DNA from: Symmetrospora coprosmae
Lineage: Eukaryota > Basidiomycota > Cystobasidiomycetes > Symmetrosporaceae
Assembly: GCA_008802785.1 (NCBI GenBank)
Contig: VUYT01000019.1
Location: forward strand, 248,001 to 312,000
Direction of reading: 5' to 3'
Length of the DNA: 64,000 nucleotides
Shown here: positions 5,966-40,100 of the stretch, in pieces
Position numbering within the stretch: position 1 is the stretch's first letter
Layout of the letters: each line of letters starts with the position of its first letter
Position numbers and translations under genes: made by a program
Notes under the pieces: model-generated
Database searches by the model: none
Told to the model about the DNA's origin: nothing
What the model saw: the letters and a program-made list of their open reading frames with translations, nothing else

Positions 5966-6105
5966 ATGGCTGCTGGCAGCTTTGGGCAGTGTTCGTTGGC
6001 TATCAGGCAGACTGGTTGTGCGAAAGTGCCAGCAACGAGGGCGCGTAGAGAATCGTATGCACAACAGAGAGGATGCTGGAGTAGCTTGGGCAAGGTCGCG
6101 GCAGC

Positions 6106-8312
6106 CTAGAACTTGAAATTGTCCTTCTTGTTGCGATCTGTGCGCTTTTGTTCTGTAGGGGCGGGACAAACACGGCGTGAGCACCAGCATCGAGAAGTTG
6201 AGGACACTCGGCAAAGCCCCACCTTGAAGTTTTCTCCGCTTGGCCGTCTCCTCTGCCACAAAGTCCGAGAAGTCCTCTCTGCCTCCCTGTCCCGCTCCCG
6301 TGGCCGTATTGCTCTGCCTTGCCGCCTCGTACTTTGCGCGCAGCTCGGCCTCGGACAAGCCCTCGAGCTCTGCCGCGTCGATCGAGAGTGCGACGGCCGC
6401 CTGCTGCGCCGCTTTCCGCTTCTGCCCTCGCTCGTCGACGCCAAGAATGGCCACATTGCCGGAGGCGACGTTGCGCGTGTCGTAGACGCGGTCCGAGCCA
6501 AGCAGGCCCCGAACGGACGCCTGCGACTCGGGCAGGACCTGGTACAGCTGCTTGGGGGGCCCACCGGCGTCCGTGTCGGTCGTGTCTTCGCGGCGCTTGC
6601 GCAGCTCGAGGAAGTCGGGCGTCTCGAGCCCGCCGGGAACGGTCGACGCCACGCTCTGAAACCCGGACGGCGTCTCCATGCCGTGCGCGAGCGAGGAGGG
6701 CGTCTCCATCCCCCCAGGAGGCAGGGCACCGTCTTGTCCGTAGCGCTGCGCGTCTTCTTGATCTTCCTCTTCCTCTTCCTCCTCCTCCTCCTCCTCGTCG
6801 CTCTCCTCGAGGTCTGGCTCAAGCTCGCCCCACAGCGTCTTGTCGACACTGTCTGCCCCTTGGTCCTCGGCAAGCGCGACTCCGAAAACATCGCCGAAGA
6901 GCGGTCGGTTGAACTCGTCCACGGGCGGCTTTCCCCACCCTCCTGGGTGGAAGCCCCACTGCGAGCCTTCGGGGATGGGCGCATTCAGACCCGGTATGCG
7001 CAAGTTGCGGTACGAAGGCGGAGGACCGAAACGCTGCATGGCAATGAGCCAGGGCGGCGGCGCTAGCGGCGGGATCGACAGAGCTTCCTTGAGTTCCTGA
7101 GACAGCTCTCCCGGCTTTTTCTCCTTGAGATTCGTCTCGTACTCCTTTCCCTCGTAATACATTTCGCCAAAGTCCGTCATGGGCGGCTTTGTCTGGAACT
7201 TGAAGAAGGCGTCGTGGAGTTTCTGGTAGTCAATGTCAATCTTGCCCATCTTTGGCTGCACGCGCTCTCGCGTCTTTGCCTTGAGCGACTGCCCTTCCTC
7301 CTTCTCCTTGATGGCGTCTCTCTGCGAGGCGATGCCGGTGTCGAGGATGAAGCCTGGTCCAGGCACAGGCACAAGGGATGTAGCTCGTCAGCCATCCTGA
7401 GGTAAATCTGTCAGGTTGCCCGCGCGAAAAAAGCCCACCTGGCAGCTCGAAGGCAGCCTTCTCGATACCCTTCTTGCCGGCCAAGTAATCGCGCTTAGCC
7501 GACCAGTGGGGAGGCACGGGTATCGAGTTCTTGTAGCTCTTCAGGTGGATGAGGAGCCTCGGGTCGAGCGCAGAGACGTCGACCCAGTCGACAACGTCTG
7601 GGCGCTTGACGAGGCGCTTGAGCTCTGCGACGCTCAGGCGGTTGAGCTTCTTCTGCTTGCGCTTGCTGAGCTCGAGGGCGGCGGCGGCTGCCTCTTCGTC
7701 CTCCTCGCTCATTGCCTCGTCGTCAGAGTAGTAGATGTGCCCCTTGCCCCCCTTCTCGTCCTCGCCTTCGGCCTTGACGGCGTCCTGTAGCCAGCACCGG
7801 GGCCAGTCAGCCAAAATGCATGCATGAAGCGAAGGGACGGCAGCAGTAGCAGCAGCAGCAGCACGGCGGCTCACATCATCGTCATACGCCTGGAACTTTG
7901 CCAGGATGGCGCGGTACTCCTCTGGAACTTCGTCACTTGCAGCCGTTCCGTCTGCCAGCGGGCTCCGGCTGCGTCGAGCTGGCTTCCGATCTTCTCGGTG
8001 CTCCTTGTCCGCCATGACCTGGTCGTAATTCTCGTCGTACTGGCTGACGAGGGCAGCAGCAGCAGCCGCGGCAGCAGCAGCATCGCTCTTGCCTCCTCCT
8101 CCTCCCCCATTCCTGCTCGTTGATGGCGCATCTTCTTCCTGCTTGACCTCTGTCGCGCTCTCCGCCGCATCCTTTGGCGCTGCCGCTGCTGCCGCCGCCT
8201 CCCTCTCCTCCTTCTCCTTCTTCTCCTTCGCCTTGAGCGCCTTCAGCTGGCCCTTGCTCAGCTTGCTCTTCTTGATGGCGCCCGCATCGCCATTCACTGC
8301 TGGAGCTGCCAT
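6106..8312 (-). CDS. CUS1: Splicing factor 3b subunit 2 (SAP145/Cus1)
   Basis: This is a U2 snRNP SF3b subunit acting at branch-site recognition in the nucleus. Four exons are separated by introns 7785-7874, 7354-7438 and 6153-6222, giving about 650 residues. The N-terminus is Lys/Ala-rich (KKSKLSKGQLKALKAKEKK) with poly-Ala tracts. The conserved core follows: PVPPHWSAKRDYLAGKKGIE, KMGKIDIDYQKLHDAFFK, PPPWLIAMQRFGPPPSYRN, HPGGWGKPPVDE and WGELEPDLEESDEEEE. The C-terminus has the family's EDFSDFVAEE and ends RTDRNKKDNFKF. The start MAAPAVNGD is the only in-frame ATG before the conserved N-terminus. It is convergent with the CDT1-like gene, with 140 bp between stops. Family identity is unambiguous and the domain order is complete. 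Confidence 0.97.
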
Positions 8313-17686: not shown

Positions 17687-18307
17687 CTACTTCCCGGACC
17701 TGTCATAGCGTCACAATGGTTGGCGTGATTAGCGCTGTCCCTCTTCGCGGCAAGTGCGCAGATGTACTCACTTCTTGATGCCCTGTCCACCCCTGAGTGT
17801 GTATGAGCGCAGAGACGACCATGGCAAAAGGGTCCAAGATCAGCTCAGAGATCTGTGTGCATCCCCGCAGCTCCCGTCCCGGCAGCGTGCGGTGGACGAG
17901 CGTCCTCCGCCATGGACAACGCACATGTTCAACGGTCCCTTCTTTCCCGTCAGCGCAGCTTTGGCAGCCGCATCCTCCTTCTTGGCTGCTTCGCGCTATA
18001 TTGCATCGACGAAAGGCGGAGTACGTTTCGCCACTTCCGACTGTCAGAGGCCGAACAGAATCTCCTCGACGACAGCGGAGCTCAGCAGGTGGCGCACCTT
18101 CAATCGCGCCGCCCTGTCATCGTCGTCCTCCTCCTTGGGAGCCTTCTTTGCTGTCCTGTGCCGCCGGAGCATCACAACAGGAGGAAGGAGGAGGAGGAGG
18201 AGGAGGAGACGCAGAGCCAGCCTCAGCCACATGGCCCTCGAGCGTACGGACAAGATGAACGCGAGCGCGACGCACTTGAGTGGCTTCTTTGTTCCTGTTG
18301 GTGCCAT
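17687..18307 (-). CDS. TMA7: Translation machinery-associated protein 7, 64 residues in five exons
   Basis: This small, highly charged ribosome-associated protein is split so finely that no long open frame shows it. Exons are 18276-18307, 18098-18155, 17925-17995, 17772-17792 and 17687-17699. The introns (120, 102, 132 and 72 bp) all have GT-AG ends and the frame is continuous. The product starts MAPTGTKKPLKTAKKAP, passes through EEDDDDRAARLKREAAKKED, and ends GPLNMGGQGIKKSGK, matching the TMA7 signature (KKPLK near the start, GG-IKKSGK at the end) and the family length of about 64. Exons four and five are only 21 and 13 nt. Intron one holds a GAG/CTC trinucleotide repeat near 18180-18212. 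It shares a 145-bp head-to-head space with HID1. Confidence 0.92.
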
Positions 18308-18420
18308 CTCGACGTCTTGTTGTGCTGGATCAGAGGAGAGGGGGAGAGTCGCGACAGGCGGGCAGGAAGAAGGGAGTCTGACAGTCTCCATCCTTCCAAC
18401 TCTTCCGCGTCGACGGCGTC

Positions 18421-18448
18421 CATCGCCCATCGCCCATCGCCCATCGCT
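18421..18448 (+). repeat. Four tandem CATCGCC heptamers just before the HID1 start codon
   Basis: Three perfect CATCGCC copies and a fourth ending in T lie 4 bp before the ATG at 18453. They would be in the mRNA leader. I cannot tell whether they act as a translation element or are a neutral minisatellite. Confidence 0.8.
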
Positions 18449-18452
18449 CGTC

Positions 18453-21400
18453 ATGTTCAGGAACATCAAGCTGTGAGTGGGTTGCTGCAGTTGCTGCTGC
18501 CTGCTGTTGCGTGGCCATGCTCCAGGTCCCACCTCGGCGCGTGACGTTGCAGTGGCCATGTATGCCGGAGAACAGCTGCAGTCCACCCATGCAGTATCGG
18601 CAGCTGGCTGCGCTCTCGCAAGGCAGATAACTCGGCGCAGCTGACAGTCTACCCGTTGTGCTATCCTCGTTCGCAGCAACCCCTTCTCGGCACCCTCGGA
18701 CCCCAAGTTGACGTTCCGCTCGACCCAGGTCCCGAGGCTATACTCTGAGCGTGCCATCCCTGCCTCCGATGTCGACTTCTGGGCCTGCTTCTACACCGTG
18801 TTTGACACTCCGTACGATGTCCTCCACCTACTCACCGCCGCCGACATCACGCGCACCTTGCAGGCACACCGCAAGAACCTCGTCACGCTCATCCAGGTCC
18901 TCGCCGACCGGATAGAGCACCTCTTGCGCCATGGCAGCAGCGACTCGAAGTTCCCGACTCCGAGCAAGAGCGCCGCACAGGGCTTTGCAGCGTACAATCC
19001 TGCCGCCGCCCTCCTGCACGCCCAGTCGCCCGAGGAGAAGGCCAACGACACGACCCGCCAGATGCTCAACTGCCTGCGCGTGTTGCAGCGAGTCATTCCT
19101 TTCGTCCTCTCGGCTGGGAGTGCGTCCCTCGCGCACGAGTACGAAGACGCTGCCAGCTCAGGCTACGGATCATCGCTCGAGGAGGACGTCTTCTGGAAAG
19201 CCAGGCGCAAGAACGCAGCTGCACAGGTGCAGGAAGTTAGCACATCAGCAGGCGCACAGTTCGTCATTGATGACGAGGAGGAGGAAGGGCCAAGCTCATC
19301 ACGGCCGGCACCGAGCAAAGAAGCCGAACTGCCTCCGCTGGCAGAACAGCTGCTGGACTCGGCAGTGGACCTTCTGTTCGTGCAGGGCTTCACGCTACCA
19401 TCGGCCACTGAGCAAGGAGGCGGGAAGGCTGCAGGAGGCCAGATAGCCTACACCATCTGGGAGAATGGAATCGGCTCGACCACTTCCGTGCCCGTCACGC
19501 CAGAAACGGACAAGAATCGCAGCGAGGTTCTACGCTTCCTTCTAGCCTTGCTCTCGAGGACTCTTTACGTGCCCACGAACGCCTACACGGCAAATGCCCC
19601 CCCGGGCTCCACATCGACTCTGAACAAGTGGCACGCCTACCTTGTCCGAACACCCTCGACGCCGAAAGCGCGCAAGGTGGTCTTGTCCTTGCTGTGCTCG
19701 CTGCTCAACGTCGCACTCAAGTCCGGCTCATATCACGCTACTGCGAGCTCGGGTCTTGTCGGGGCCGTAGGCGGTGCGGTTGGCGATTCGTACGAGAAGC
19801 TGCTGTCGGGAGGCAAGCGCAAGGACGACCCGCCTCGCCTCGGTCTGGTGAAGGTCGCTGTGCAGGTTCTAAATGTGCTGCTGTGTACTCCTACCGAGGC
19901 GTCGCTGCGGGCCGGGGAGGCGAGCAGACAGGTTCACGCCGAGTCGGTCAGGAGCCCGCCAATGACACCTAGCCTGGGCAGCACTTCCATGAGTCAACAA
20001 GCATCGACGACCTCGCTCGCGTCTGCGCTTGCCAGTGCGCCTAGAGGCTCAGCGGGTGGTGGCAGGCCAGACGCAAATGCGTTCCAATTCTTCCTGTCGA
20101 AGCTACACAGGCAAAGTGACGTCGGCTTCATTGTCGAGGTAAGTGAGCCTCTGTGCTTTGCTTTGACCCGACATCCTGGCTGACATAGCTACTTCATGAT
20201 TCACAGAACCTCTTGGTCATTCTCCTCCAACCGATGAACACATCCTTTCTCAAGCTGCCTTTCGAGGCGGTCGGAGTAGCCAGCACGGCAAGTCCAACAC
20301 AAACGACTGACTTCCTAATCCTCTTGTGGCGCCTTCTGGACAGCATCCCGGTGAGCAACCCTTGTATTGCCCTTGAAGACGAACAATCGGTCTGTACTGA
20401 CGAATCCTGCTTGCACAGAATTTCGCCTCTGCCCTGCTGAGCAACGGCAAGAACGCGCATCAGGTCATGATCATCCTCGTCTACTTTTGCCTGGAGCACA
20501 AGGACGACCCATCTCAACTCGGTCTCGTCAAGCTCGCTGCTTTCCTGCTGCAGACCATCTCCGCCGAGCGCTCCTTCGGCTCGTCACTGAATGTGCCCCT
20601 CGATGCGCATATCCCCCTGCCTTCCCGATACAGCGTGCCGGCCCCTAGCACTGCCGCAGATTCTCTCATCCAGCATCTCTACACCCTCGTCTTCAGCACG
20701 CAGGGCGCGCTAAATGCCATCTACCCTGCCTTCATCCTGACGATCACCAACGTCTCGCCATACCTAAAGAACCCATCTGTTCGCACTTCAACCCGCTTGC
20801 TTCAGCTGTTCCTCGCAATGTCGAACCCGGGCTTCCTGCTCAGCGACGAGGCCAACCCAAGGCTGGTCTTCTACCTCCTGGAAGCCTTCAACAATGTCCT
20901 ACAATATCAGCTGTCTGGTACGTGGTCGTCACCTCTTGCGGCTCGTGTTGTTCAGAAGCTGACGTTGCGTCGCTTCCTTGCAGACTGCCCGAACCTCGTC
21001 TATTCCATCATCCGATCTCATGCGCGCTTCGAAGAGCTTGCCAACTTTACAGTTGCAAATGGCGTCGCTTCTATCCGTCGCGCGCGCAGAGGCAAGGCCG
21101 GGGCCGACACAGCGTCCGTCAAATCCCCTCCGAGGGTGTCGCTCGCATCCGAGCAGGCACCACGCGAAGGCGGCGAAGCTGCTGTGACAGCGCCAGCAGA
21201 CGAGGAGAAGGCTGCTCTTATGCAGCAGGAGAAGGACGTGAAGGAGGCAGAGAACGTCGCCGCCCCTGTCTCGCCCACCACGCCCTCTGACTCAGAGTAC
21301 CCGCCACGCCAGACACGGGCAGGGAAGATCCTGTCCGAGAAAGCAGCAGGCAAGTTGCCGATGCGCTCAAACTCTCAGCTGTCCGTGCACAGTGCCGCGA

Positions 21401-21987
21401 GTGGGGAGAGCGGGGCGGGAACGGCTTTTGAAGGAACCGATGATGATGGACCCTTCGTCGCCAAGAACGGTTTCATGCCGACCGAGGCGTGGGTCGCTTC
21501 TTGGCGGGAGGGCTTGCCAATCGACACCATCCTCATCCTCGTGTCAGAGTGCCTGCCCAAGGTGTCGAGCCTCGCGGCGCTCTCGACGAACACGGCTGTG
21601 CTCGAATATTTGCGCTCGGTGACGCTCGTCGGCCTCCTGCCGCCACCTGCGCCGATCCGCGCTCGCCGCTTCGTTCACTCGCTGCACTCCGTCGTGTGGC
21701 TCATGAGCCTGGCGTGGGGCAACGTCTATGTCCACTCTCTCGCTGCACCTGGCGCCGGAGCGGGCGTGTGGCAGGACACTGGCGTCAGACTGTTTGCGCT
21801 CCGTCAGCGCAACGATCGCGGAGGCGTGCAGGCTGTCATGTCGAGCCTCGTCGAGCAGGGCCTTGGTATACTCAGCCTGGGAGGAGGAGGTGCAGCTGGC
21901 ACAGGCAGCGGGGCAAGCAGCCCTGTCGCACGGCGATCAACGAATAGAAGTAGGAGTACCAGCAGTGTGATGGGTGGTATCGTGTGA
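18453..21987 (+). CDS. HID1-domain Golgi trafficking protein
   Basis: Hid1 family proteins (C. elegans HID-1, S. pombe Hid1/Ftp105) are peripheral Golgi proteins involved in secretory sorting and, in fission yeast, localisation of a deubiquitinase. Exon one is only 20 nt (18453-18472, MFRNIKL, the invariant family start) and joins 18677 across a 204-bp intron. Following motifs are VDFWACFYTVFDTP, QMLNCLRVLQRVIPF, VFWKARR, VILLQPMNTSFLK, IILVYFCLEHKDD, LIQHLYTLVFSTQGALNA, ANPRLVFYLLEAFNN and PNLVYSIIRSHARFEELANF. Introns also lie near 20139-20206, 20350-20419 and 20920-20983. A disordered Ala/Ser/Glu-rich loop (residues around 720-860) separates the last conserved block containing MPTEAWVASWREGLPIDTIL. 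Length and order fit the family. Confidence 0.92.
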
Positions 21988-22174
21988 CGCATGCAGTTGT
22001 GCAAGAAGTTAACGACTATGCAGCTCGCCGGATGTGGACGGCACTCATTACCGAGACTGAATACGTCCGGCCCATCAAGACCGCGATGGAACCTCAAGCA
22101 GTAATCAGAATGCGCGATGCGTGACGGCCTTCGTCAACCTCTTCTCCCCTCCTCCCGTCCGGACGATGGCTGTA

Positions 22175-23157
22175 TCAAGCCAGACTACCGTGCTCTAATA
22201 TACGAGCTCGCTTCCTGTCTCTGACTCCTTCCGCCGCACTGCCGGCTGGGCTGTCTGGCTCTAACACAGCTTCGGTGGTTGCTGGCGGCCAGGCTGGGAG
22301 GGAGGCTTTGAGGGTCGTGAGAGTGATCACCTCGTCCATGTCGAACCTCCCCTCTGCGTACAGACGTTCGTCCGGCTCCGCCTCCCGTCCATCCTTGTGT
22401 CCCTTGCCATTGGCCACTTCCGGGATGCGGCCTTTCTTGGGATCGTCAATTCCAATGACCACTTCGACGTCTTCCGGTTCCCACTGGTTGAAAAAGCGAC
22501 GGACCTCGGTGCACGCTTCCGCCAGCACGTAGTGCGAGCTCATGAGTTCGTTACCACCAGGGCCGTCGCTCTCTTCTATATCAGGTTGAGGTGCAATCAG
22601 TCAGAACTTATAGCGCGAGTCGCCATGTGCGTATGTCCACTTACGCATGACATGGTAAATGAACTCCGGCATCTGCGTGGGAGTCTGCGGCGCATGCGAA
22701 GGTGCCGGCTCCCTCTCGATGTACACCTGTACGCAGTTTCCCTCGCCCTTGCGGTACCGCCCTGCGAAAGCCATGTGCTCCCCGAGCTGTTCGGGACGAG
22801 CGTCAAGATCTGCCTGCTCTGCGTCTCCTTGCCCGTTTGCCAGTTTCTCTGCGTAGGCATCGATCTCGTCGAAGTCGTCGCATTCGTCCTTGTTGAAATA
22901 CCAAAACGCTTTGAAGCGTCCGGCCACGATAGCAGCTGCCTGGTCCGCGCGCACCAAGCGTTGAGCCTCCGCAAGCGAGTAGCTGGACCCAACCAGCGTA
23001 GGCTCGATGTGGTCGCGGTTCTCGTCTTCGCTGTCTGCGGATCCTGCAGCAGCGCCAACATCAGCGCGTCAGGGGCTGATCTCACGCGTTAAGCTTCGAG
23101 GGCAGGTGAGACGCCTCAGCTCACTCGAACGCGGTAGATGTGCTGAGATGGGACCAT
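22175..23157 (-). CDS. Repeat-built protein of unknown function, paralogue A
   Basis: I do not recognise this family. Exons are 23125-23157, 22645-23043 and 22175-22575. Two repeat units are visible. Unit one has HIYRV, VGSSYSLAEAQRLVR, then LGEHMAFAGRYRKGEG and EREPAPSH. Unit two has MPEFIYHVM, SSHYVLAEACTEVRRFF and DERLYAEGRF. A conserved intron falls just after the IY-V motif of each unit. The C-terminus is basic (RDRKRARILE) and may be a nuclear signal. Exon one is one base shorter than in paralogue B, so canonical splicing to 23043 puts unit one out of frame; an acceptor ending ..GACGAG (next base 23024) would restore it. No signal peptide or membrane helix is seen. It may be a working or a decaying gene. 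Confidence 0.6.
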
Positions 23158-23587
23158 GTCGTCGCGTAGATATGCTCTTGTCGCTGCAGGGCCTCCAGTG
23201 TGGGCCTGTGCTGAAGACACTGGTGACCTTTGTGCGCGTCCTGCGCAAAACCCGATCGGCCTTCACGTGCTGTTTGCTCCGTGCGACGCGCAAGGAGTTG
23301 TCCCGGCTTCTAGCTCCTCAACCGCTAGTTGTCGCGCACCTCAGTCCGCTTGTACGCGCACGCCAGTGCAGTAGCGAATGAGTCACGATGCACTGCGCGT
23401 TCAGAGCTGGCTTTGACGCCTCCAGGCAAGATGTGACGAGACCGGTTCCCGCACATAACAAAGCGAGTCCTATCTTACGAATACCATCCCAAGTTGCTGA
23501 CGCATGATGGTAGCTGTGCAGATACCACGATTCCAACGGACCGTCTTTCCTCCTTGGCGTATCTTCCGCGTCTCCCTTTCCGGTGTC
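23158..23587. other. Spacer between paralogues A and B
   Basis: About 430 bp lies between the start of A and the stop of B, both on the minus strand. It must hold the promoter of A. I see no further coding signal and no clear repeat. Confidence 0.5.
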
Positions 23588-25117
23588 TCATGGGGACGAA
23601 CCACACAGGTCAATCACTGAGCCCGCTGCAACCGGTCGTATCTTCTTAGAAGGGCCTGCGGCTGATGCGACGGCATCGCCGCTGCGCTTTCCTCCTCTCT
23701 TCTCGCTTTGTTCTGCCTCCTCCCGGCCCTTCTCGGTGCTCTGGTGAAGGCGCAGCTTGCTGACCTCGATCCGGCCCATGTACAGGTCGTCATGGACCTG
23801 ATACGCTTGGCCAATGTATGGCACACTTCGCGACCCTCTGTTCTTCTCCTCGACCTCATTGGGGCCACCAAAGACGTCATCCTCTTCCTCGGCGTAACTG
23901 TCAGGCAGATCGCACATCTCGAGGAACTCCTCACGCGCTCTGCGATTTGCGTCGAAGAGGCTGACGTACACGTCTTGAGTGCAGAGTCCACGGTCTTCCT
24001 CATCATCCTCATGGTGCTCCTGAGAGGTTCTGGTGATGCAGTATACTGCACTGGGCAGCCGGGAAGATGGGGATGGGTATTGAGCGGGCGGCGCAGACTG
24101 CGCTACTGTCGTTTGTGTCGTTGCGGAAGGCGCAGCTGCGACAGCTCCTCCTTGAGGCTGCTCCTGATCCCCTCCAGCAACCGCAGTCGCGATCGCTGTC
24201 CCTGGCTCTTTCACCTCTGCAATGGTCTCCGTAGGCCAGGTTGGCGCTGGACCCTTCGAGATTGTCAGAGTGTGCTCTTCTCCATACTCGAAGGTGCCCG
24301 TGGCGTAGAGATGGACGTTCGGCTCGGGCTGCCAATCGTCCTCGTGCTCCTCGTCATCCGGCGTTTCCGGGATCATGCCCTTCTTGGGATCGGCTATGCC
24401 GTACTCGACATCGACATCGTTCCACTTGCCGAAGTAGTGTCTGATGTCCCAGCATGCGTCTGCAAGGCTGTAGTGTGAGCTCTCCACACGTTTGTGACCT
24501 CCTGGTGGTCCGTGTCTTCCCCCTTCGGTGTACACTGGGATGCACACGGGCAGCGGATGAAGCGCGACATGAGCCGGCTACCCGTACTGACACTGTGAGG
24601 AACGAATCACTCACGCATCACATGGTAGATGAACTCGGGCATCTTCGGTCAGCCACTGTGAGAAGGTGCGGGCTCCGGCGCGATGAAGACGAGGACGATG
24701 TTCAGGTCTTTCCGGAGGCCGACAAAGGCCATCTGAGGGCCAAGTTTCTCTGGATTGGCGTGGAACTCTCTTGCTTCCTCTGCCCATTCCGCATATTCGG
24801 GGTCGTCGTTGCTGATGTCCATGCCCTCCCAGTCCTGCATGTTGTCCCTCTCGCAGAAGCCGTGCACGGTGAAGACGCCTTTGGCAAGGTCACCCGCCTG
24901 ATCTTTCCGGACGAGGGCCTGTGCTTCCTCCAGCGAGTAGCTGGATCCAACGAGCTCTTCGGGTACATTGTTCTCTTCGTGCTCGTCCTCGGTGCCCGTT
25001 ATGCCTGCGAGAAGGGAGACGCGTTGAATTGCCTAGTCAGGCCCGTCGCGCATTCATCAGCACAAGTCGGGATCGCGGCTCACGCAGCACGCGGTAGATC
25101 AGCCCTGCAGACGCCAT
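23588..25117 (-). CDS. Repeat-built protein of unknown function, paralogue B (split by an in-frame TGA)
   Basis: This is a tandem paralogue of the gene at 22175-23157. Exons are 25084-25117, 24615-25004 and 23588-24534, with introns in the same places and phase as paralogue A. Unit one reads LIYRVL, VGSSYSLEEAQALVR, LGPQMAFVG and APEPAPSHSG, then meets TGA at 24649-24651. Six bases later an ATG (24642) opens unit two: MPEFIYHVM, SSHYSLADACWDIRHYFGKW and VHLYATGTFEYGEEHTLTI. A third, more diverged unit follows: AVYCITRT, VYVSLFDANRRAREEF and DLYMGRIEVSKLRLHQ. The tail has PSKKIRPVAAGSVIDLCGSS, combining a basic stretch and a SUMO-interaction-like VIDL. The stop may mean a pseudogene, two very close reading frames, or a missed small intron. 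Function is unknown. Confidence 0.6.
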
Positions 25118-25786
25118 GTCGATGGTATAATACTATGGTCCTGTATCACAGCAAAGACAGCCAGGGAGTGGCCGTTGCTTGCGCGCTCACGACGCGTCCT
25201 TCTCCCTCGGAGCCGATCGAGTGCACACGTGCCTCGCATGGGTTGAGGCGACGACCCACACCACCTTGCTTTCCTCCGAGTCGTGCTTGCTTTCACTCGA
25301 AGCGGATTGCCGCACGATATATGCACGCTCAACCTTGCGCACCTCTTGCAACTGTTTACGATAGCTGTGTTGAGGCGTCCCAAGCCCACCCGAAACGATG
25401 CCAGCCAGCTCGGACGGCGCTTCGGGACTCGGTCGGGGCCAAGCTGGTGCAGTTTGCCGTGCTTGCGCATCAGGACGGTTCCTACACAATACTGTATCGA
25501 TTCGTACTGTCACTGCAGTGAAGCCTTACTTGCTTACCTCGGGCTACTCTAGCGACCTCTTGCGCTCCCTGCCACCACATCCACAAGCCCGGCAAAAGCG
25601 TAACTCCGCTCACCCACTTGCTTGCCCTCAGAAGGCGTTGCGAACAGCGCACTTGCGGATATTCGCTTTCGAGCTCCCTTCCACGTTTGCTGCCGTGGCC
25701 GCTCGCCCAGTGCCCTTCCCCGGCACCGGAGACACCGGCGGATCCCAGCTGAGACACGCTGGGACGCCAAGCTGATGCTACCCCAC

Positions 25787-25840
25787 TGATAAGATCAGAT
25801 CAGATTTTATCAGATCAGATCAGATTAGATCAGGGAGATC
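25787..25840. repeat. Imperfect GATCA/ATCAG pentanucleotide tract
   Basis: GATCAG-type pentamers recur here, interrupted by a TTTT and a TTA. The flanking GATAA and TTATC make the left part nearly palindromic. It lies about 300 bp before the first BIM1-like gene and contains a GATA-factor motif. Confidence 0.75.
25807..25815 (-). promoter_or_regulatory. ATCWGATAA motif (Urbs1/SreA/Cir1-type site) upstream of BIM1-like gene 1
   Basis: The plus strand reads TTATCAGAT, the exact reverse complement of ATCTGATAA. That is the consensus bound by fungal iron-responsive GATA repressors (Urbs1, SreA, Sre1). It is 296 bp from the start codon at 26111. A TGATAAG lies 20 bp to the left. Binding is inferred. 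Confidence 0.5.
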
Positions 25841-26110
25841 ACACGCCCACATACCGTGCAAGCGGCCGGATCCTGTCTCACCCGGGTCGCATCTCTGGGC
25901 GTCCCCGGGTTGACCAGAGCACGAAAACTCTGAACGCTCATCGGCCAATCTGAAAGCAGAGCTGCACGAGGGCGTTCCCACTGCTGAAGGCTGATGGTAC
26001 AAGAGGCTGCTTCGCTTGCGCCTCTCCTTTCTCTTTCTTTCCTTTCTCAACCAGCCATATCGACTTTTCAGACCCCATACACCCTTAAATCCCATCCCTA
26101 CCTTCTCATC

Positions 26111-27195
26111 ATGCTCGCTCAGATCGCCGTCGCACTCTCCGGAGCAGCTGCAGTCTCTGCCTCCGCCATCCTCCTGCCGAGGCAGGGTTCTGGTGCTGTG
26201 CGTCCTTGCTCTGCCAGCCCACCCGTGTCTGCAGCGCCCTTGCTGATCAGGCCCTCTCCGACTCGAGCAGACCATCTCTTCGCCAGGAGCGATCGGTGCG
26301 CTCACATTATCGCTTCCCCCGTGTTACGAGCGTGATGATTGAATCGTCCCACCTTTAGGCTTCGAATACCCCGCCATTCGAGGATGGGCTCGCGAGAGCG
26401 CTACCGTCCAGCCGTGTGGTGGCTTCGCTCTCGGTGCGTGCAGCTTTGCTAACAATGTCCAGCCGAGACAAAGAGCCTGTCTGATACATCATCCAATGCT
26501 ATCCATTCTTACAGGCGGACGATCGGACTTCCCCGTCACCGGTGGACAGGTTGGCCTGATTCAGTCTCGGGACGGCAACGACATTCAGCTATCTTACTCG
26601 ACCAACGCAGGTGAGCCGCGCCAATTCTCCTTCTGCACTGGCACCTTCTGCAGGATACCGACTGACATAGCGTGATGGCCGAGGCACAGACCCTCAGAGC
26701 CTTGCCGACTTCCAGCCTCTCCTCCCAAACATCACCCATCTCTTTGGCGGAACTGCGTGCCTCCAGACTCCGGACTTCACCTCGCTCGGACTGGCAGCTG
26801 GCCAGGTCGTCACACTCCAGCTACAGTACAACGCAGGCCCGCAGAGGAACAACTTCCACCAGTGCGCAGACATTACCCTGGTCCCGCAGGCCGACTACAC
26901 TCCAGCCAGCAACTTCACCTGCACCAATTACACTCGCAGCACCCAGACTAGGTCCGGCGCGAACACCGCCCTCGTCAGCAGCGATGCTGCGGCCTCCACC
27001 GAGTCGGCTGCCCCTGCCGCGTCCACTGCGCCCACTTCAGGTGCCAGCAATCTTCACATTGTGCGTCAACTTTCGCATTCGGGCGCCCATCACAAGAGGA
27101 GCCATCACTTAGAGACTGACATATCGCACTCACAGGCTGCTGGAAGCGTCGTCGGCGCCGCCGTCCTGGCTGCCGCTTCCGCCTTCGTCTTCTAG
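26111..27195 (+). CDS. BIM1-like (X325/LPMO-like fold) GPI-anchored surface protein 1
   Basis: BIM1-like proteins are small cell-surface proteins; Cryptococcus Bim1 takes part in copper acquisition. Exon one (26111-26197) encodes the signal peptide MLAQIAVALSGAAAVSASA and then ILLPRQ. Exon two is only 25 nt (26271-26295). Later exons give YPAIRGWARESATVQPCGGF, FPVTGGQV, FQPLLPNITHLFGGTAC, VTLQLQYNAGP and CADITLVPQ, with NFTCTNYT glycosylation sites. A Ser/Ala-rich linker follows. The last exon encodes the hydrophobic tail AAGSVVGAAVLAAASAFVF, a typical GPI-attachment signal. The conserved cysteines are present. The mature N-terminus does not start with histidine, so the copper histidine brace of Bim1 is not formed in the usual way. 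Exon pattern matches the neighbour at 28508-29853. Confidence 0.8.
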
Positions 27196-28507
27196 AAGAT
27201 CAGCGACTACTAGTGGAACGAGCTAGAGAAAGGTCTGTAGAGAGTTCTGTGAGACGGTAGAACACAGAACGAATGCATGAATGCAAGGTCAAAAAAGGGT
27301 CGCCGCGTCACGTGTACTGCCTTCGTTGTCGCTGTCGAAGGATGCCCGAGGGGCATGGCTCTGCTCCGCCAAACAACTTGGCGTCTCTGTCGACATATTG
27401 GCAGTGTGCTTCTCTCCTGCTATACAGAAGACAGCTAAGGTAGCACGCCTCGCGGTAATGCGCGTGCTAACTTGAGAACGGTCTTCGACAGAGCAGCCAA
27501 TGCCAGGCGCCGGAAAGGTCCTTCAGGTGCGAAGTGCGGTCCCACTCAACGCAGCCAGTAACAGCAAGCATGGCAGAAGCAGCTTCTGCTCGCTGTCACA
27601 TTCCGTAGGATATGAGGGGCTCTACCCGCGCAATCGTCCTTGACCGACACGAGGTTTCTGGTTTGGGATCATGGCAAGTGCAGCCTTGCGAGAGGCCCCA
27701 GCCCTGGTAGTACGTACAGAACGCACAGAGTCGCTCGCCAATGCCATCGCCCGGAAATCGCTGGAATAACGGAGTCCGCCCTTCTGAGACTGCGCTTCGA
27801 CGCGACAGAGAAGTCCGAGTTCGGCGACGTCGGCGCCTCACTGCTTTCCTGCCACCACCGCCTTCCTTACGTGCGCATCGTCTAATGGCGCTGGCGGTCG
27901 AGTGCTGTATACTGAAAAGGAGCACCCGGACCTTCCCGTTGCTAAGTGCTTACACTCGCCGGGCTATCCCTTCACCCGAAGCAGCGCCACCGTCTGAGAC
28001 AGCCCCAGCGATCTAATCAGATACCGAGATCTCCTAAGAGATCAGTGACTGGCGCGTCCTCGGCTCGGCGACCTCTTCACAGGCATCACACGATGTTCGT
28101 GGGTCGGCAGCCCTCCCGGTGCCGACACCGCGGGCCTAGCGGAGGGGCAAAGAGATGCCAAGCCGAAGCTACTGATTTCCCCTCTTAATCTTATCTGATC
28201 CTCCGACGCCTCCTGATCGACTGATGAGCAGGAGAAGCTTCTCAAGTGCACGGACAGATGCTGAGACACATGGTCAAGCACACTCCTCGTGATGCAAGCG
28301 CATCCGTGGGTCCGCCCGAAAATTTCTCTGGCTTGGGCGCGAACAGCCAATGGGGATAGCAGCACCCCCGGCAGAGCTGGCGTACAAGAAGGCAACATCT
28401 CGTCTGCTCCTCTCCTCTTTCCATCTTCCTTCCAGATAACAATCGCATCTTGTCTTACATATATCCACCTTGAGGCCTACCTCCTCCTTCAAGCTATCTA
28501 CACGAGC
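27196..28507. promoter_or_regulatory. Region between the two BIM1-like genes
   Basis: About 1.3 kb without a convincing gene. Short open frames are present but show no family motif. The right part carries the GATA motif at 28191-28199 and a pyrimidine-rich leader before the second BIM1-like start. Confidence 0.5.
28191..28199 (-). promoter_or_regulatory. ATCWGATAA motif upstream of BIM1-like gene 2
   Basis: The plus strand reads TTATCTGAT, the exact reverse complement of ATCAGATAA, the same iron-GATA consensus as at 25807. It lies 309 bp before the ATG at 28508, nearly the same distance and orientation as in the paralogue. A near match (ATCAGATAC) is at about 28018. Confidence 0.5.
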
Positions 28508-29853
28508 ATGTTCTCTCAAGCCGCCATTGTACTCTCCGGTGCTGCTCTTGCATCGGCAGGAGCCATCCTGCCCCGACAGAACTCTGGCTCTGGTGGTTCC
28601 GTCAGTGCACCTAGGCCATTTGAACCATCCTGATGTGTATGACAAGCTGACAGATCCAACATCCTCTTGCGCCTCGCAGGCCCTCAGCTCGCCCGGTGCC
28701 ATTGGTAAGTCGGCTTTCCGCTCAGTAAACTTACACGCTCGTCCTTGATGCCCACCCCTGCCTCGCAGGTTTCGCTTATCCTCCCCTTCGAGGCTGGTCG
28801 TCCGAGACATCCACCGTGCAGCCCTGCGGCGGTTTCGCCCTTGGTGGGTGACCATGCTATACACCTCAGGAGCGTCTATATACCCGCCCTAACAAGAGCG
28901 TCATCGTAGGTGGACGAACGGATTTCCCCCTCACAGGAGGCCAGGTTTCCCTTGTTCAGGCCCGAGACGGCCATGACATCCAGCTCTCTTACACCACCAA
29001 TCCTGGTGCGTAGATCTGCTCCTCCCGGTGTGGGGACTGACTCCGGGACGGCTAGGCTAAGAACATGTCTGCATCCCATATCAGACCCGCAGTCGCTGGC
29101 AGACTTCCAGCCCCTCCTGCCCAACGTCACCCACTTGTGAGTCCGATGGTGCCGCCAACCAATTGCCAAGTACGAGGAAACGTGGCTAAGATCTGATCAA
29201 TCTGCCCGCCTTTCCCAGGTTCGGAGGAACTGCTTGTCTGGAGACCCCCGATTTCTCGTCCTTTGGACTCGCTGCCGGCCAGGTCGTGACCCTGCAGCTC
29301 CAGTACAACGCCGGACCCCAAAGGAGGAACTTCCAGCAGTGCGCAGACGTCACTCTCGTTCCATCGACCCAATTCGTCCCAGCATCGGAGTACACCTGCG
29401 TGAACTACACTCGCAGCACCCAGACTCGCTCGGGCGGGAACACAGCCGCCGCTAGCGCCGGTTCCTCCTCAAGTGGCCCCGGAAAGACCCTCTCTCTCGT
29501 ATGTTGTTCTGCTGGTCCACACCCGAGGGTTTGGAAGACATACTGAGTTCGTCTGCAAACCCGCGCTTAACCAGGCTGGGGCCGGCGGTATCGGCGCAGG
29601 TGTTGCTCTGGTCTTTGCTGCTGCCGTGCTTGGCCTGCTCACTGTCGCCGGTCTGGTCACTTTCGGCAAGAAGTCCCGAGCCCCTAACACCGTCTGGAAG
29701 GACAGCGAGGTCCGCGAGCGCGATGATGCTTCAGTAAGCATGGCACCGTCAGAAACCGGCGGTGCACTGCAGAAAGCTAATCCGGTCTCTCACGTCACAG
29801 ACCCTGCAGGGAACCAACTCGAGGGAGGAGAAGGTTGTTGCTTGAAGAGATAG
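28508..29853 (+). CDS. BIM1-like surface protein 2 with transmembrane helix and cytoplasmic tail
   Basis: This is a tandem paralogue of the gene at 26111-27195 with the same exon layout. Exon one (28508-28600) encodes the signal peptide MFSQAAIVLSGAALASAGA and then ILPRQ. The body has YPPLRGWSSETSTVQPCGGF, FPLTGGQVSLVQ, DFQPLLPNVTHLFGGTAC, LQLQYNAGPQRRNFQQCAD and YTCVNYT. Unlike its neighbour the C-terminus is a true membrane helix (GVALVFAAAVLGLLTVAGLV) followed by about 60 cytoplasmic residues ending GCCLKR. The paired cysteines there could be acylated. It also lacks an N-terminal histidine after signal cleavage. A role in metal handling is inferred from family only; an adhesin or receptor role is equally possible. 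Confidence 0.8.
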
Positions 29854-30182
29854 ATCAGACTCGCGGAGCTCCTGCGGGTCAGCCCTTGAGCAAAGAAGAG
29901 ACAATGTGTGACTGCCCAAGCCCTCGTTCTGCCAAAGACCGCCAGTAATTCTTATGCCACGCTTGGAGGAGACCGCTCTGTCATAGCCAGCTAGGGAGCT
30001 GCAATGCAAGTTTGAGCGCAATCCATATGCACGTGAAGACCTCATTACGATACCGCTACAAAACTCGAAAACCCTTCTCCCAATTTCCAAGCCTCTATAT
30101 AGCACGCTCCGGATGCGCACATTGTCACTGGACGTGATACAGGAGCTGATGCTCGCCGATAAGCTTCTAGAGCTTCAACGTA
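29854..30182. other. Convergent spacer after BIM1-like gene 2
   Basis: About 330 bp between the stop of BIM1-like gene 2 and the stop of the acidic membrane-protein gene. I see no coding signal. It probably holds both 3' ends. Confidence 0.5.
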
Positions 30183-31483
30183 TTACGTGCTTCTCCTGAG
30201 CCTTGCCGCCTCTTCGGCCTCGGCGATCTCGACGTCGAATTCCTGCGTCTCCACTGTTGAGGCTGCTTCGCTGACCACCGGACTCTCTGCCGATCCATCG
30301 GCTGGCGAGTCTGCAATGATCTCCGACACATCTTCACCGCCCGACTCGGCAAACGTGGGCGCCTCGACCTGCTCAAAGACGCTGCCTGGCGAAGTGGCCC
30401 TGATGTCCGGAGAGAATCAGACATAGACCTCGCGTTATTGTCTCATGAAGGAACGAGGGACGAAGCTCACTCGTCGACATCCGAGGTGCCTTGCTCGTCA
30501 GAAGGGACCGGATCGACAGCCTCGGTGGCGACCTCAGTGGGCGTCCCTGCCGTCTCGGGCGCCGAGTCGGATGCGGCTGGTGTTTCGTCCGCCGATGTAG
30601 CTGCGGCTTCCTCAGGGTCTCCGTCCGTATTGGAAACCGGGCTGTCGGCAGCTGCCTCTGGACTCTGCTCTGCGGCATCGGGCGCCACATCAGGTGTCTT
30701 CGTCTCCGTCTCCGCCTCCGCAGCTTCTGTGACGATGTTCCCATCGTCCGCAGTTGTGGCAGGGACTTCGGCAGACGTGTCTGGGGTCTGCTGAGTCTCG
30801 TCTGCTGGCGCAGTCTCGGCTGCCGCCTGTGCTTCGTCCACAGCTATGTTGCCGGCGTCGTCGCTAACTACAGGCTCAGCGCCTTCGTCGGCGGTAGAGA
30901 CCTCGGATGTACCTTCCTCCGTCGCAGGCTCCTCGCTGTTGCTCTCCTCCTCCTGCTCGCCAACTTTTCCTGCGCCATTCTGGAAGCGCGTCGGATTCTC
31001 CACGTCTTCCTCCTCTTGGACGGGCTCGGTCACCACTGTCGTGTCTTCGTCGCTGTTGTCCTGAGAGGATGAAGATGCTGCGACATCTTCACTGGCCTGT
31101 ACCAGGCCGGCGTCCAGGCCCGAGACGCCGGTCGACGCGGATGTGTCGAGGGCAGAGACGCCGGAGGCGGCGTGTCCATCCGGGCGGAAGATGGCAGCCA
31201 CGCCCGCGATGAGCAGGATGGCAGAGAGGGCAAAGATGGAGTACTTGATCATGTCTCGCCTCGCCCGCTTGAGCGCCTTCTTGACATGCTTGTGGCGCGG
31301 ACTTGACTTGTTGGAGCTGGAGGAGGGCTCCTGCTTCGGGTCGTCAAGGTCGCCTGTATTGCATCGCGTAGCCGAGCATCAGTCGGGCTCGGGACGCATG
31401 AACGTTCAGACTTGGAGCTCACCCAGCTCCTCATCCAGCATCTGGTACTGCTTCTCGGAGCTTCCGAGCTTGGGAGAGATCAT
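30183..31483 (-). CDS. Single-pass membrane protein with long acidic domain
   Basis: I do not recognise a family. Three exons: the first encodes MISPKLGSSEKQYQMLDEEL (start 31483). The second (to about 30465) encodes a basic segment KHVKKALKRARRD, then the helix IKYSIFALSAILLIAGVAAI, then a long chain rich in Glu, Ala, Thr, Ser and Asp. The third (about 30183-30415) ends EIAEAEEAARLRRST. By the positive-inside rule the short basic N-terminus is cytosolic and the roughly 300-residue acidic part is luminal or extracellular. No cysteines or glycosidase motifs stand out in the acidic part. The composition would give a disordered, highly negative domain. Gene reality rests on continuous frame, good splice signals and the membrane anchor. 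Confidence 0.65.
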
Positions 31484-37149: not shown

Positions 37150-40100
37150 TCAAACAATGCTCTTCTCGTTGCTTGTAGCGGGCGCAGGGGCCTGTCCGTA
37201 CTGCGCGCCGATGCCCTCCTGGTGGCGAATGGCGTCGGTTTCGTTGTTTCGGCGCATGTCGTTGAGACGGTTCTCCTCCTTGTCGAGCTTTCTGAAGGCG
37301 ATCCAGAAGATTACGCCGGCAATTGACGAGAGGATGGCGAACACGCTGTAGTTCTGTGCATTGGAAGGTAGCAGATGGATAGTCAGCTCGCGCTGCCTTT
37401 GGTGCTGAAGAGAGGAAATCCAGTTCGCCACTCACCCAGACGAGCAAAGGGTCGGTGGAGATGGGGACGAAGGCCTGGGCGAGGGCCGCGCTGAAGGACT
37501 GGGTCACGAGGAAGACGGCCGTGACCAGAGATCGCATGTTGGGCGCAGCCTTCGTGAATGCATCTGCAGATCCAGGGAAGCGGACTTGTCAGCAAGCCAG
37601 CAAAGCGTTACTCAGAACGGTAGGGAGATCGAGAGGCGCACACTCGAGTCCAGTAATTGAGGCAACTGAAGGTCACATCGCGGAGGCGAAAAGACGTCAG
37701 TCAGGACGTTCCGTGCAAGCGGTGCGCGGACAGTATGAACGCACAGATCTCCGAGATACCGATCAAAACGTAGGTAGGCGTCTGGATCCACACGTTGAGT
37801 GGCGAGACTTCATCGCATGTGGCTGCCTGGCTTCCGCACGGCGAGGTCTCGTAGATGTAGTGCTGCGTGATGGCCGCGCTCATCATGGCGACACTCGCGA
37901 TAAAGAAGCCGAGCGTGATCTTCTTGATGGGCGTGAACTGGATGCCTCGGGATCGGAGGAACGGGTAAATGACGACGTCGCTGCAAGATTATGCGATTTT
38001 AGCGGATGACCTTGCGCATGTCACAGAAGCTAGATGAGCTCACCACAGAGGAATCATGATGACGAGCGCTGTCAAAGCAGAGAAGCGTCAGCGCACGATC
38101 GAATGTGATGCTCATCATCCAGTCGCAACAAACAGATGGGATTCAAGTTGTTGATCTGAAGCGGCAGAACCATGTCAGCAACAATCGACACGACGCGCCA
38201 AAGTACCATGCCAGCGACCTACGAGATCGTTGGGGAGACCGTTACGCGTCATCGTCGCAGCCTGTGAAGTCAGGTTCGAGGTGATTTGCTGATGATAAGG
38301 CAGTGAGTGAGTCAGCTGGTGCCTTTGCTATAGCTCTTTTGGAGCGCAATAGAGAGCTTACGTTGTAGCAGATCTAGGAACGGTCGCGGAGGAACGGCGC
38401 GAGCAGCAGAAGGGGGAGTCAGCTACGACGTCGCCCACACCAGGCGACGGAGGACGTATGAACGGACCCAGTAAAGAGGGTATAGCAAGAATACGTTGCA
38501 CGCCTTGATGCTTCGGCGAACTTCCTCAACCCAGACTGAGTAAAAGGCGGATCACCTACGTTAGCTGTACTGGCCGGGTCATTACAGTATCGATCGTAAG
38601 GGACGTACGATCATCGAATGTCATCCAGCTGGGCTTGTCTCCGTGCTTGGCGACGACCTGCGAAGGCTTTGCTCGCTGCCAGAACTCGGCACTCCTGAGA
38701 CCGGCAATGAAGCCGATTCCGCTAGCCTTGGACTCCTTGAAAGCGTATTTGCACAGACGGAATGCCTGCACCATGACTGAGCCCTGAGGCGGAACCTTCA
38801 CATAGCGCTTGTTGCCTGGTGATCATCGCGATTCGTCAGCACGAGAGTCGGGAGAGCCTGGGCGCAGTCCGCATCACGCACCCCAAATCATGACCAGAGG
38901 TGTCAAGCAAAAGACGATCGTCTATAGATGGGCACTGTCAGCCGCTGATTAGCGTAGCCCGGAGGCACTATCGGGTTGCGTACAGGGCTGCAAGAAGCGA
39001 GAAATGTCAGTATTCGTGTCGCTAACATGCCACGCGCGAAGGAAGCGTACGCACATCGTGAACGAGAGCCAGAAACCGATGTCCTGCTCGGCGCTGCCAT
39101 CACAGAACGTGCATTCAGCCGGGATTTACGAAGCATAGGAGCGCACGAAGAGGCCCTTCACTCACAAGACCATCCCGATCTGTCCAGAGAGTGCTCCAGC
39201 GTTGATGAGTAGATAGAAGTACATCATGATCCTGCTGACGGTCATGGCCGGGTCAACGAGAACCTGCTCGCCAGAGCCGAGTGTCTTGACCCGGAGGTGC
39301 TTGTCCGTGATTTGCTCGGCGATCAGAGGGGAGATGTTCGACTTGAAGACGCCTGTTCCCAGACCCATGACGATGATGGCGATCACGAGCACGCCGTATG
39401 ACGCCGAAGAGTTCGAGATGACGGAGGGTATGGCGCAGATGATGAGGAGGATGTGCCCGATGATGGCGATACCGATGGCCACGCAGATCGTCTTGAACCG
39501 CCCCCAGACGGCATCTGCGAAATAAGCTCCGACCAAAGGTGTAACGTACTGTGCGAGTCCGGACGCATGGTTATATCAGCCCGGCTTCTCGCTGCGGAAG
39601 GGTGTCCTGAGCCACTCACGACCCAGAAGGTGTTGAAGGTGGTGATGCCGAATGCAGCTTGTTGACCTGTGACAGTGACTCGAATCAGCGAGGGGAAGAG
39701 CCTTGAGCGTTTCCTGAGACAATCGCACCTCTGCCGAGAGCACCGGGGGTGTTGACTCCGGTTAGGCCCTTGATGGACCCGGTCGTCGAACCTTCGGGCA
39801 AGGGGAACTGGATGAAGTTCGTGAGGACTGCCATGCAACCGTAGTAGCTGACTGTAGGGTGGGTCACGGTTGTAGGTTAGCCACGGCAGCAGGCGGTCTG
39901 ATAGGCGATGTGTCCAGAGCACATACATCGCTCGGCAAATTCGATGAAGGCCACAGTAAAGATGATGAGGTTGATGCTGCCGGGAACACGGCGAAGAGAA
40001 GCACGCTGCTCGGCCGAAGGGTAGTCTGGATACTCGGACTCCAGGTCTGCCGATGTTGTGTGGGTGATGCCCTTTTCATCGCGCACTTTCTCGGCGGCGA

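What the first reader, a model, noticed from the sequence alone, without database searches (positions are those of the whole stretch)
22175..25117. Unrecognised protein family assembled from repeated units, as a tandem gene pair
Both genes contain units with the pattern hydrophobic-IY-x-V, a spacer of about 25 residues, SS-Y-SL-x-x-A-x-x-x-x-R, and a later strand-like block (MAFAGRY, LYAEGRF, YMGRIEV). Paralogue B has three units, with IY-to-YSL distances of 30, 29 and 30 residues. The intron after the IY-V motif occurs in the same phase in units one and two of both genes. So exons were duplicated first within the gene, then the gene was duplicated. I know no family with this layout.
Basis: partly seen in the sequence, partly recalled or inferred. 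Interest (0 to 1): 0.75.

Follow-up and report, generated by a model that had tools for sequence, protein, structure and literature searches.

The report
Fungal tandem pair of repeat-unit genes
Two neighbouring fungal genes are duplicates of each other and are each built from copies of one small protein unit that matches no domain in the libraries searched, but both gene models carry an irregularity and their function is unknown.

Summary
The observation largely holds. Two minus-strand genes in fungal DNA (A 23157-22175, B 25117-23588) are tandem paralogues: unit 1 is 41% identical (E 9e-24), unit 2 46-48% (E 4e-30, 5e-33). Units 1 and 2 look like diverged copies: profile-profile E 0.011, though hhalign probability is only 4%, and 0 of 300 column shuffles score as well. 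An intron falls 3 codons plus 1 base after the Tyr of IY-x-V in three of four cases. B's third unit has the motif but no significant alignment.

Corrections: A's first intron is not in the shared phase; its frame survives only with acceptors ending GAG. B has an in-frame TGA (24651-24649) just before the Met of unit 2. Unit 2 begins at a conserved Met, so I infer duplication and fusion of whole one-unit genes, not of exons.

Pfam and NCBIfam gave no match at their cut-offs; no fungal collection was searchable; structure models were too poor to use. The functional guess, acidic nuclear adaptors, is weak. Modest interest.

The parts
25084..25117 (-). Gene B exon 1 (ATG to IYRVL, start of unit B1)
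25005..25083 (-). Gene B intron 1, 79 bases, GTGAGC...GCAG, phase 1
24615..25004 (-). Gene B exon 2: body of unit B1 and start of unit B2 (MPEFIYHVM)
   Evidence: B1 41% identical to A1
24649..24651 (-). In-frame TGA between units B1 and B2, 6 bases before the ATG at 24642
   Evidence: no GTRNGN donor upstream of it in exon 2
24535..24614 (-). Gene B intron 2, 80 bases, GTGAGT...CCAG, phase 1
23588..24534 (-). Gene B exon 3: body of unit B2 (to 24233), alanine-rich linker, unit B3 (24064-23741, no intron), basic tail
23603..23647 (-). B tail: basic KKIR (from 23647) and VIDLC (23617-23603), which resembles a SUMO-interacting core
   Evidence: sequence, coordinates worked out from its exons; label by analogy with the VIDLT core of PIAS1 (PMC3901395, passages)
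23125..23157 (-). Gene A exon 1 (ATG to IYRVR); donor GTGAGC in phase 0
23021..23124 (-). Gene A intron 1 if acceptor GAG|AAC is used (the more usual-looking CTGCAG acceptor, exon from 23043, shifts the frame)
22645..23020 (-). Gene A exon 2: body of unit A1 and start of unit A2 (MPEFIYHVM)
22576..22644 (-). Gene A intron 2, 69 bases, GTAAGT...ATAG, phase 1
22175..22575 (-). Gene A exon 3: body of unit A2 and basic tail (RDRKRAR)

Best explanation
A and B are tandem paralogues in a fungal (probably basidiomycete, inferred) nuclear genome. Shown: they are homologous along units 1 and 2. Supported, not proven: units 1 and 2 are diverged copies of one another. Inferred: a one-unit gene with a short first exon (Met ... 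IY-x-V, then a phase-1 intron) was duplicated in tandem and fused, and the fused gene was then duplicated; B also has a third, strongly diverged unit without the intron. Each unit is guessed to be a small domain of strand, acidic loop, strand, helix, later strands. The function I think most likely, with weak support, is that of acidic nuclear adaptor proteins: the repeated small domains bind partners, basic tails carry the protein into the nucleus, and the VIDLC tail of B binds SUMO-modified proteins. As sequenced, each gene carries one irregularity (phase break in A1, TGA in B), so one or both may be decaying or wrongly assembled.
For: Paralogy: (A1/B1 E 9e-24; A2/B2 E 4e-30 and 5e-33). Constraint: (A2/B2 dN 0.43, dS 1.32; A1/B1 dN 0.54, dS saturated). 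Units 1 and 2. Shared intron position, 3 codons + 1 base after the Tyr of IY-x-V, in B1, B2 and A2. Unit 2 begins MPEFIYHVM in both genes, where a start codon would stand. Motif in 5 of 5 units; 0 of 20000 (strict) and 15 of 20000 (looser) shuffles of B3 have it, and in the six-frame window only B3 matches (the others are split by introns) (the patterns were written after seeing the units). Acidity and tails: pI 4.4-4.8, KKIR, VIDLC, RDRKRAR.
Against: hhalign probability for units 1 against 2 is only 3.8%, and two of the four cross-unit pairs are not significant. B3 has no significant alignment to any other unit. A1's intron is out of phase with the rest and the TGA in B has no good splice explanation. 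Both structure models have mean pLDDT near 40, so the fold is not shown. The same simple patterns for basic and SUMO-binding motifs also match inside the units (RRAR in B3, KKGR and VEVV in A2), so they are weak; A lacks VIDL. No expression data or orthologues were available.
Confidence: 0.45

Rival explanations
1. One or both genes are decaying duplicates: the TGA in B and the phase break in A are recent disabling changes in genes that were functional until lately.
For: One irregularity in each gene, while the rest stays open and shows coding constraint.
Against: The frame is intact for 324 codons from the ATG after the TGA, and exons 2-3 of A are open; A has an alternative in-frame acceptor, and B can be read as two open frames that each start with ATG.
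Confidence: 0.25
2. The region called B is two coding units: a one-unit gene (25117-24649) and a two-unit gene starting at the ATG at 24642, expressed from one transcript or by leaky termination at the TGA.
For: TGA, then 6 bases, then an ATG with A at -3 at the conserved unit start. Polycistronic transcripts are reported in mushroom-forming fungi (PMC4503453, abstract start and one passage) and UGA readthrough in Ustilago maydis (PMC4207609, passages).
Against: The efficient readthrough context reported there is UGA CU; here it is UGA CC. The passage seen of PMC4503453 leaves open how such transcripts are translated. A sequencing error is simpler.
Confidence: 0.12
3. Sequencing or assembly errors at single sites explain both irregularities, and the genes are ordinary intact fused-unit genes.
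For: Both irregularities are at single sites in otherwise constrained coding sequence.
Against: No reads or second assembly to check, and no whole genome is held.
Confidence: 0.25

Closest known systems
phrog_8341 (Mycobacterium phage Arbiter gp74 and near-identical proteins)
   Same: Unit A2 residues 6-52 match profile positions 4-50 of 81 (E 0.028). A2 and gp74 align without gaps over 49 residues, score 70, 0 of 2000 shuffles as good: IY/LY-x-V, then E-x-x-S-x-H-x-x-LAEAC. That gp74 belongs to phrog_8341 is my inference from the two searches.
   Different: Picked out of a large search, so the shuffle figure is post hoc; tblastn E is 2. A1, B1 and B3 do not match gp74 (1228, 1314 and 737 of 2000 shuffles as good) and B2 only weakly (10 of 2000). 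In the phage collection 30 of 39 matches are 95% identical or more and the rest weak, so no profile could be built. A lead, not a relationship.
Small bacterial strand-strand-helix domains such as DUF7336 (recalled)
   Same: Recalled pattern: a first strand, an acidic loop, then G-x-Y-x-S-x-x-x-A at the start of a helix
   Different: Pfam reports no such match for any unit; the one paper search for the name found 0 papers. No membership claimed.
Proteins with SUMO-interacting motifs (PIAS1, RNF4)
   Same: VIDLC at the end of B resembles the VIDLT core of PIAS1 (PMC3901395, passages)
   Different: No acidic flank after the core in B; A lacks it; no Pfam domain of such proteins is found in the units. 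A short motif only.

Membership tests
Any Pfam-A family | Unit reaches a curated cut-off | tested here: not met
   0 families for 4 of 5 units; B1 matches only Toxin_36 (a 17-position model) over 14 residues, E 0.0013, 19.9 bits, below the cut-off of 25
Any NCBIfam family | Unit reaches a curated cut-off | tested here: not met
   0 families for 4 of 5 units; B1 lists two, 13.1 and 8.8 bits against cut-offs of 300 and 1697
phrog_8341 | Significant full-length profile match shared by the units | tested here: not met
   1 of 5 units (A2), E 0.028, first part of the unit only
DUF7336-like domain | Profile match or same fold | tested here: inconclusive
   no Pfam match; structure models too poor to compare; the resemblance is recalled
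SUMO-interacting proteins | Hydrophobic core of VIDLT type | tested here: met
   VIDLC at the end of B; no [VI][VI]DL in A (B1 was not part of that scan)
SUMO-interacting proteins | Binding of SUMO | not testable with these tools
   needs an experiment

The most novel reading that the evidence does not exclude
B is a fungal dicistronic or readthrough gene in which a one-unit protein and a three-unit (or separate two-unit) protein come from one transcript, the UGA between units 1 and 2 setting how many copies of a new domain family the product has.
Probability: 0.07. Interest if true: 0.65.

Novelty: new member of a known kind. Interest (0 to 1): 0.3.

Why it matters
If real and widespread, it is a small uncatalogued fungal domain whose copy number changes by fusion of tandem genes, with the intron position as a marker of the fusion. 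It would be one of many lineage-restricted families. The stop codon at a unit boundary would matter more if it proved conserved.

Tried and rejected
Relatives: viral contigs with the A2/B2 and A1/B1 alignments (4 and 58 pattern matches, 0 confirmed), genome contigs with both (116 and 83 pattern matches, 0 confirmed), plasmids by DNA (no match) and by protein for A2 only (21 records, best listed E 2), phages by protein for A2 (31 records, best listed E 2) and B1 (no match). A1, B2 and B3 were not searched in phages or plasmids. None of these collections is fungal, so the misses say little about fungi. PDB sequences: three profile searches, best E 0.36, 0.12 and 0.18. The match of A1/B1 to yeast cytochrome c (E 0.18) was rejected as chance; by eye no CxxCH is present. 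Structure: B3 alone, mean pLDDT 41.0, and A exons 2-3 with two B pieces, mean pLDDT 38.4; both too poor for a fold search, so none was made. Their strand and helix strings fit the guess in part but are not evidence. A third unit after gene A: tblastn of B3 against the window (E up to 1) finds only itself; a 10-residue match of B2 at 37234-37205 (E 0.008) was not followed. Shared promoter of A and B: only 7-9 base matches. RNA families, window 18000-30500: 0 at gathering score. Literature: searches; papers seen only as listings and abstract starts, and three as passages.

Full report
Setting. The window is eukaryotic DNA with short introns. Of 10 open frames given to Pfam, 7 matched something: among them a Hid1 gene on the + strand in two pieces (18645-20180 and 20401-21984; E 1e-58 and 1e-72), two BIM1-like frames (26671-27192 and 29190-29543; E 5e-12 and 8e-9) and a DUF382/PSP gene (5708-7387). 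From these and the short introns I infer a fungus, probably a basidiomycete; no call names the organism and no genome is held.

Gene models. On the minus strand, B has exons 25117-25084, 25004-24615 and 24534-23588; A has exons 23157-23125, 23020-22645 and 22575-22175. Three of the four introns that follow an IY-x-V motif are phase 1 and lie 3 codons plus 1 base after the Tyr (B1, B2, A2). In A1 the donor GTGAGC is phase 0. A scan of GT...AG pairs of 40-200 bases, with acceptors up to 60 bases past 23020, keeps the frame without a stop only with acceptors ending GAG (23021, 23003 or 22967). The more usual-looking CTGCAG acceptor (exon from 23043) shifts the frame.

The stop in B. An in-frame TGA lies at 24651-24649, 6 bases before the ATG (24642) that begins unit B2. 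Exon 2 of B has no GTRNGN donor upstream of it; the 10 in-frame GT...AG pairs that would remove it begin GTTCCA, GTCGGC, GTCCTC or GTCTTC, unlike the GTGAGC, GTGAGT and GTAAGT donors of the other introns. B is therefore either two open frames (129 and 324 residues) or one gene with a stop.

Paralogy and units. By blastp A1/B1 are 41% identical (E 9e-24) and A2/B2 46-48% (E 4e-30 and 5e-33) (A1 in that call was a hybrid). Third positions diverge most. A1/A2 give E 0.035-0.039 and shuffle p 0.0085; A1/B2 p 0.0095 in the C-terminal part; A2/B1 (p 0.09) and B1/B2 (p 0.18) are not significant. The profile of A1+B1 against A2+B2 aligns in register with E 0.011, but hhalign gives it a probability of only 3.8%; with each profile built from two sequences I lean on the shuffles, of which 0 of 300 reach its score, and on the shared intron position. 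B3 is not significant in any alignment. It is included on the motif, which a strict pattern finds in 5 of 5 units and in 0 of 20000 shuffles of B3, a looser one in 15 of 20000. The patterns were written after seeing the units, so the figures flatter them.

Origin. Since like units of the two genes are closest, the unit duplication came before the gene duplication. Unit 2 begins MPEFIYHVM in both genes, where a start codon would stand, followed by the intron in the same place. I read this as tandem duplication and fusion of whole one-unit genes; B still has a stop at the joint. This is inference.

Family. No unit reaches a curated cut-off in Pfam or NCBIfam. A2 alone matches phrog_8341 weakly; the phage proteins that A2 hits by tblastn (E 2) are a set of near-identical mycobacteriophage proteins. 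The 49-residue ungapped match is striking but comes from a large search and is not shared by A1, B1 or B3. Three PDB sequence searches gave nothing below E 0.12. No fungal collection could be searched, so 'unrecognised' means only not in these libraries.

Function. The products are acidic (pI 4.39, 4.71 and 4.82 for B unit 1, B units 2-3 and A) with basic tails; B ends in KKIRP...VIDLC, which resembles a SUMO-interacting core. The same simple patterns also match inside the units (RRAR, KKGR, VEVV), so they count for little. A nuclear adaptor is my most likely guess, at perhaps one in five taken by itself. Structure models were of low confidence.

Verdict. Interest is modest.

Noticed in passing
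26671-27192 and 29190-29543: Two frames with BIM1-like copper-acquisition domains lie near each other on the + strand, possibly another tandem duplicate next to this pair.
   Followed up: partly
22265-23089 and 24445-25518, + strand: Long open frames (275 and 358 codons) run antisense to exons of A and B; probably shadow frames in GC-rich coding DNA.
   Followed up: no
25788-25833: Array of 9.2 copies of GATCA (78% matches) upstream of gene B.
   Followed up: no
21988-22174: The Hid1 gene and gene A converge, with 187 bases between their stop codons.
   Followed up: no
37205-37234, - strand: A 10-residue stretch 80% identical to the loop of unit B2 (tblastn E 0.008), probably low complexity.
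   Followed up: no
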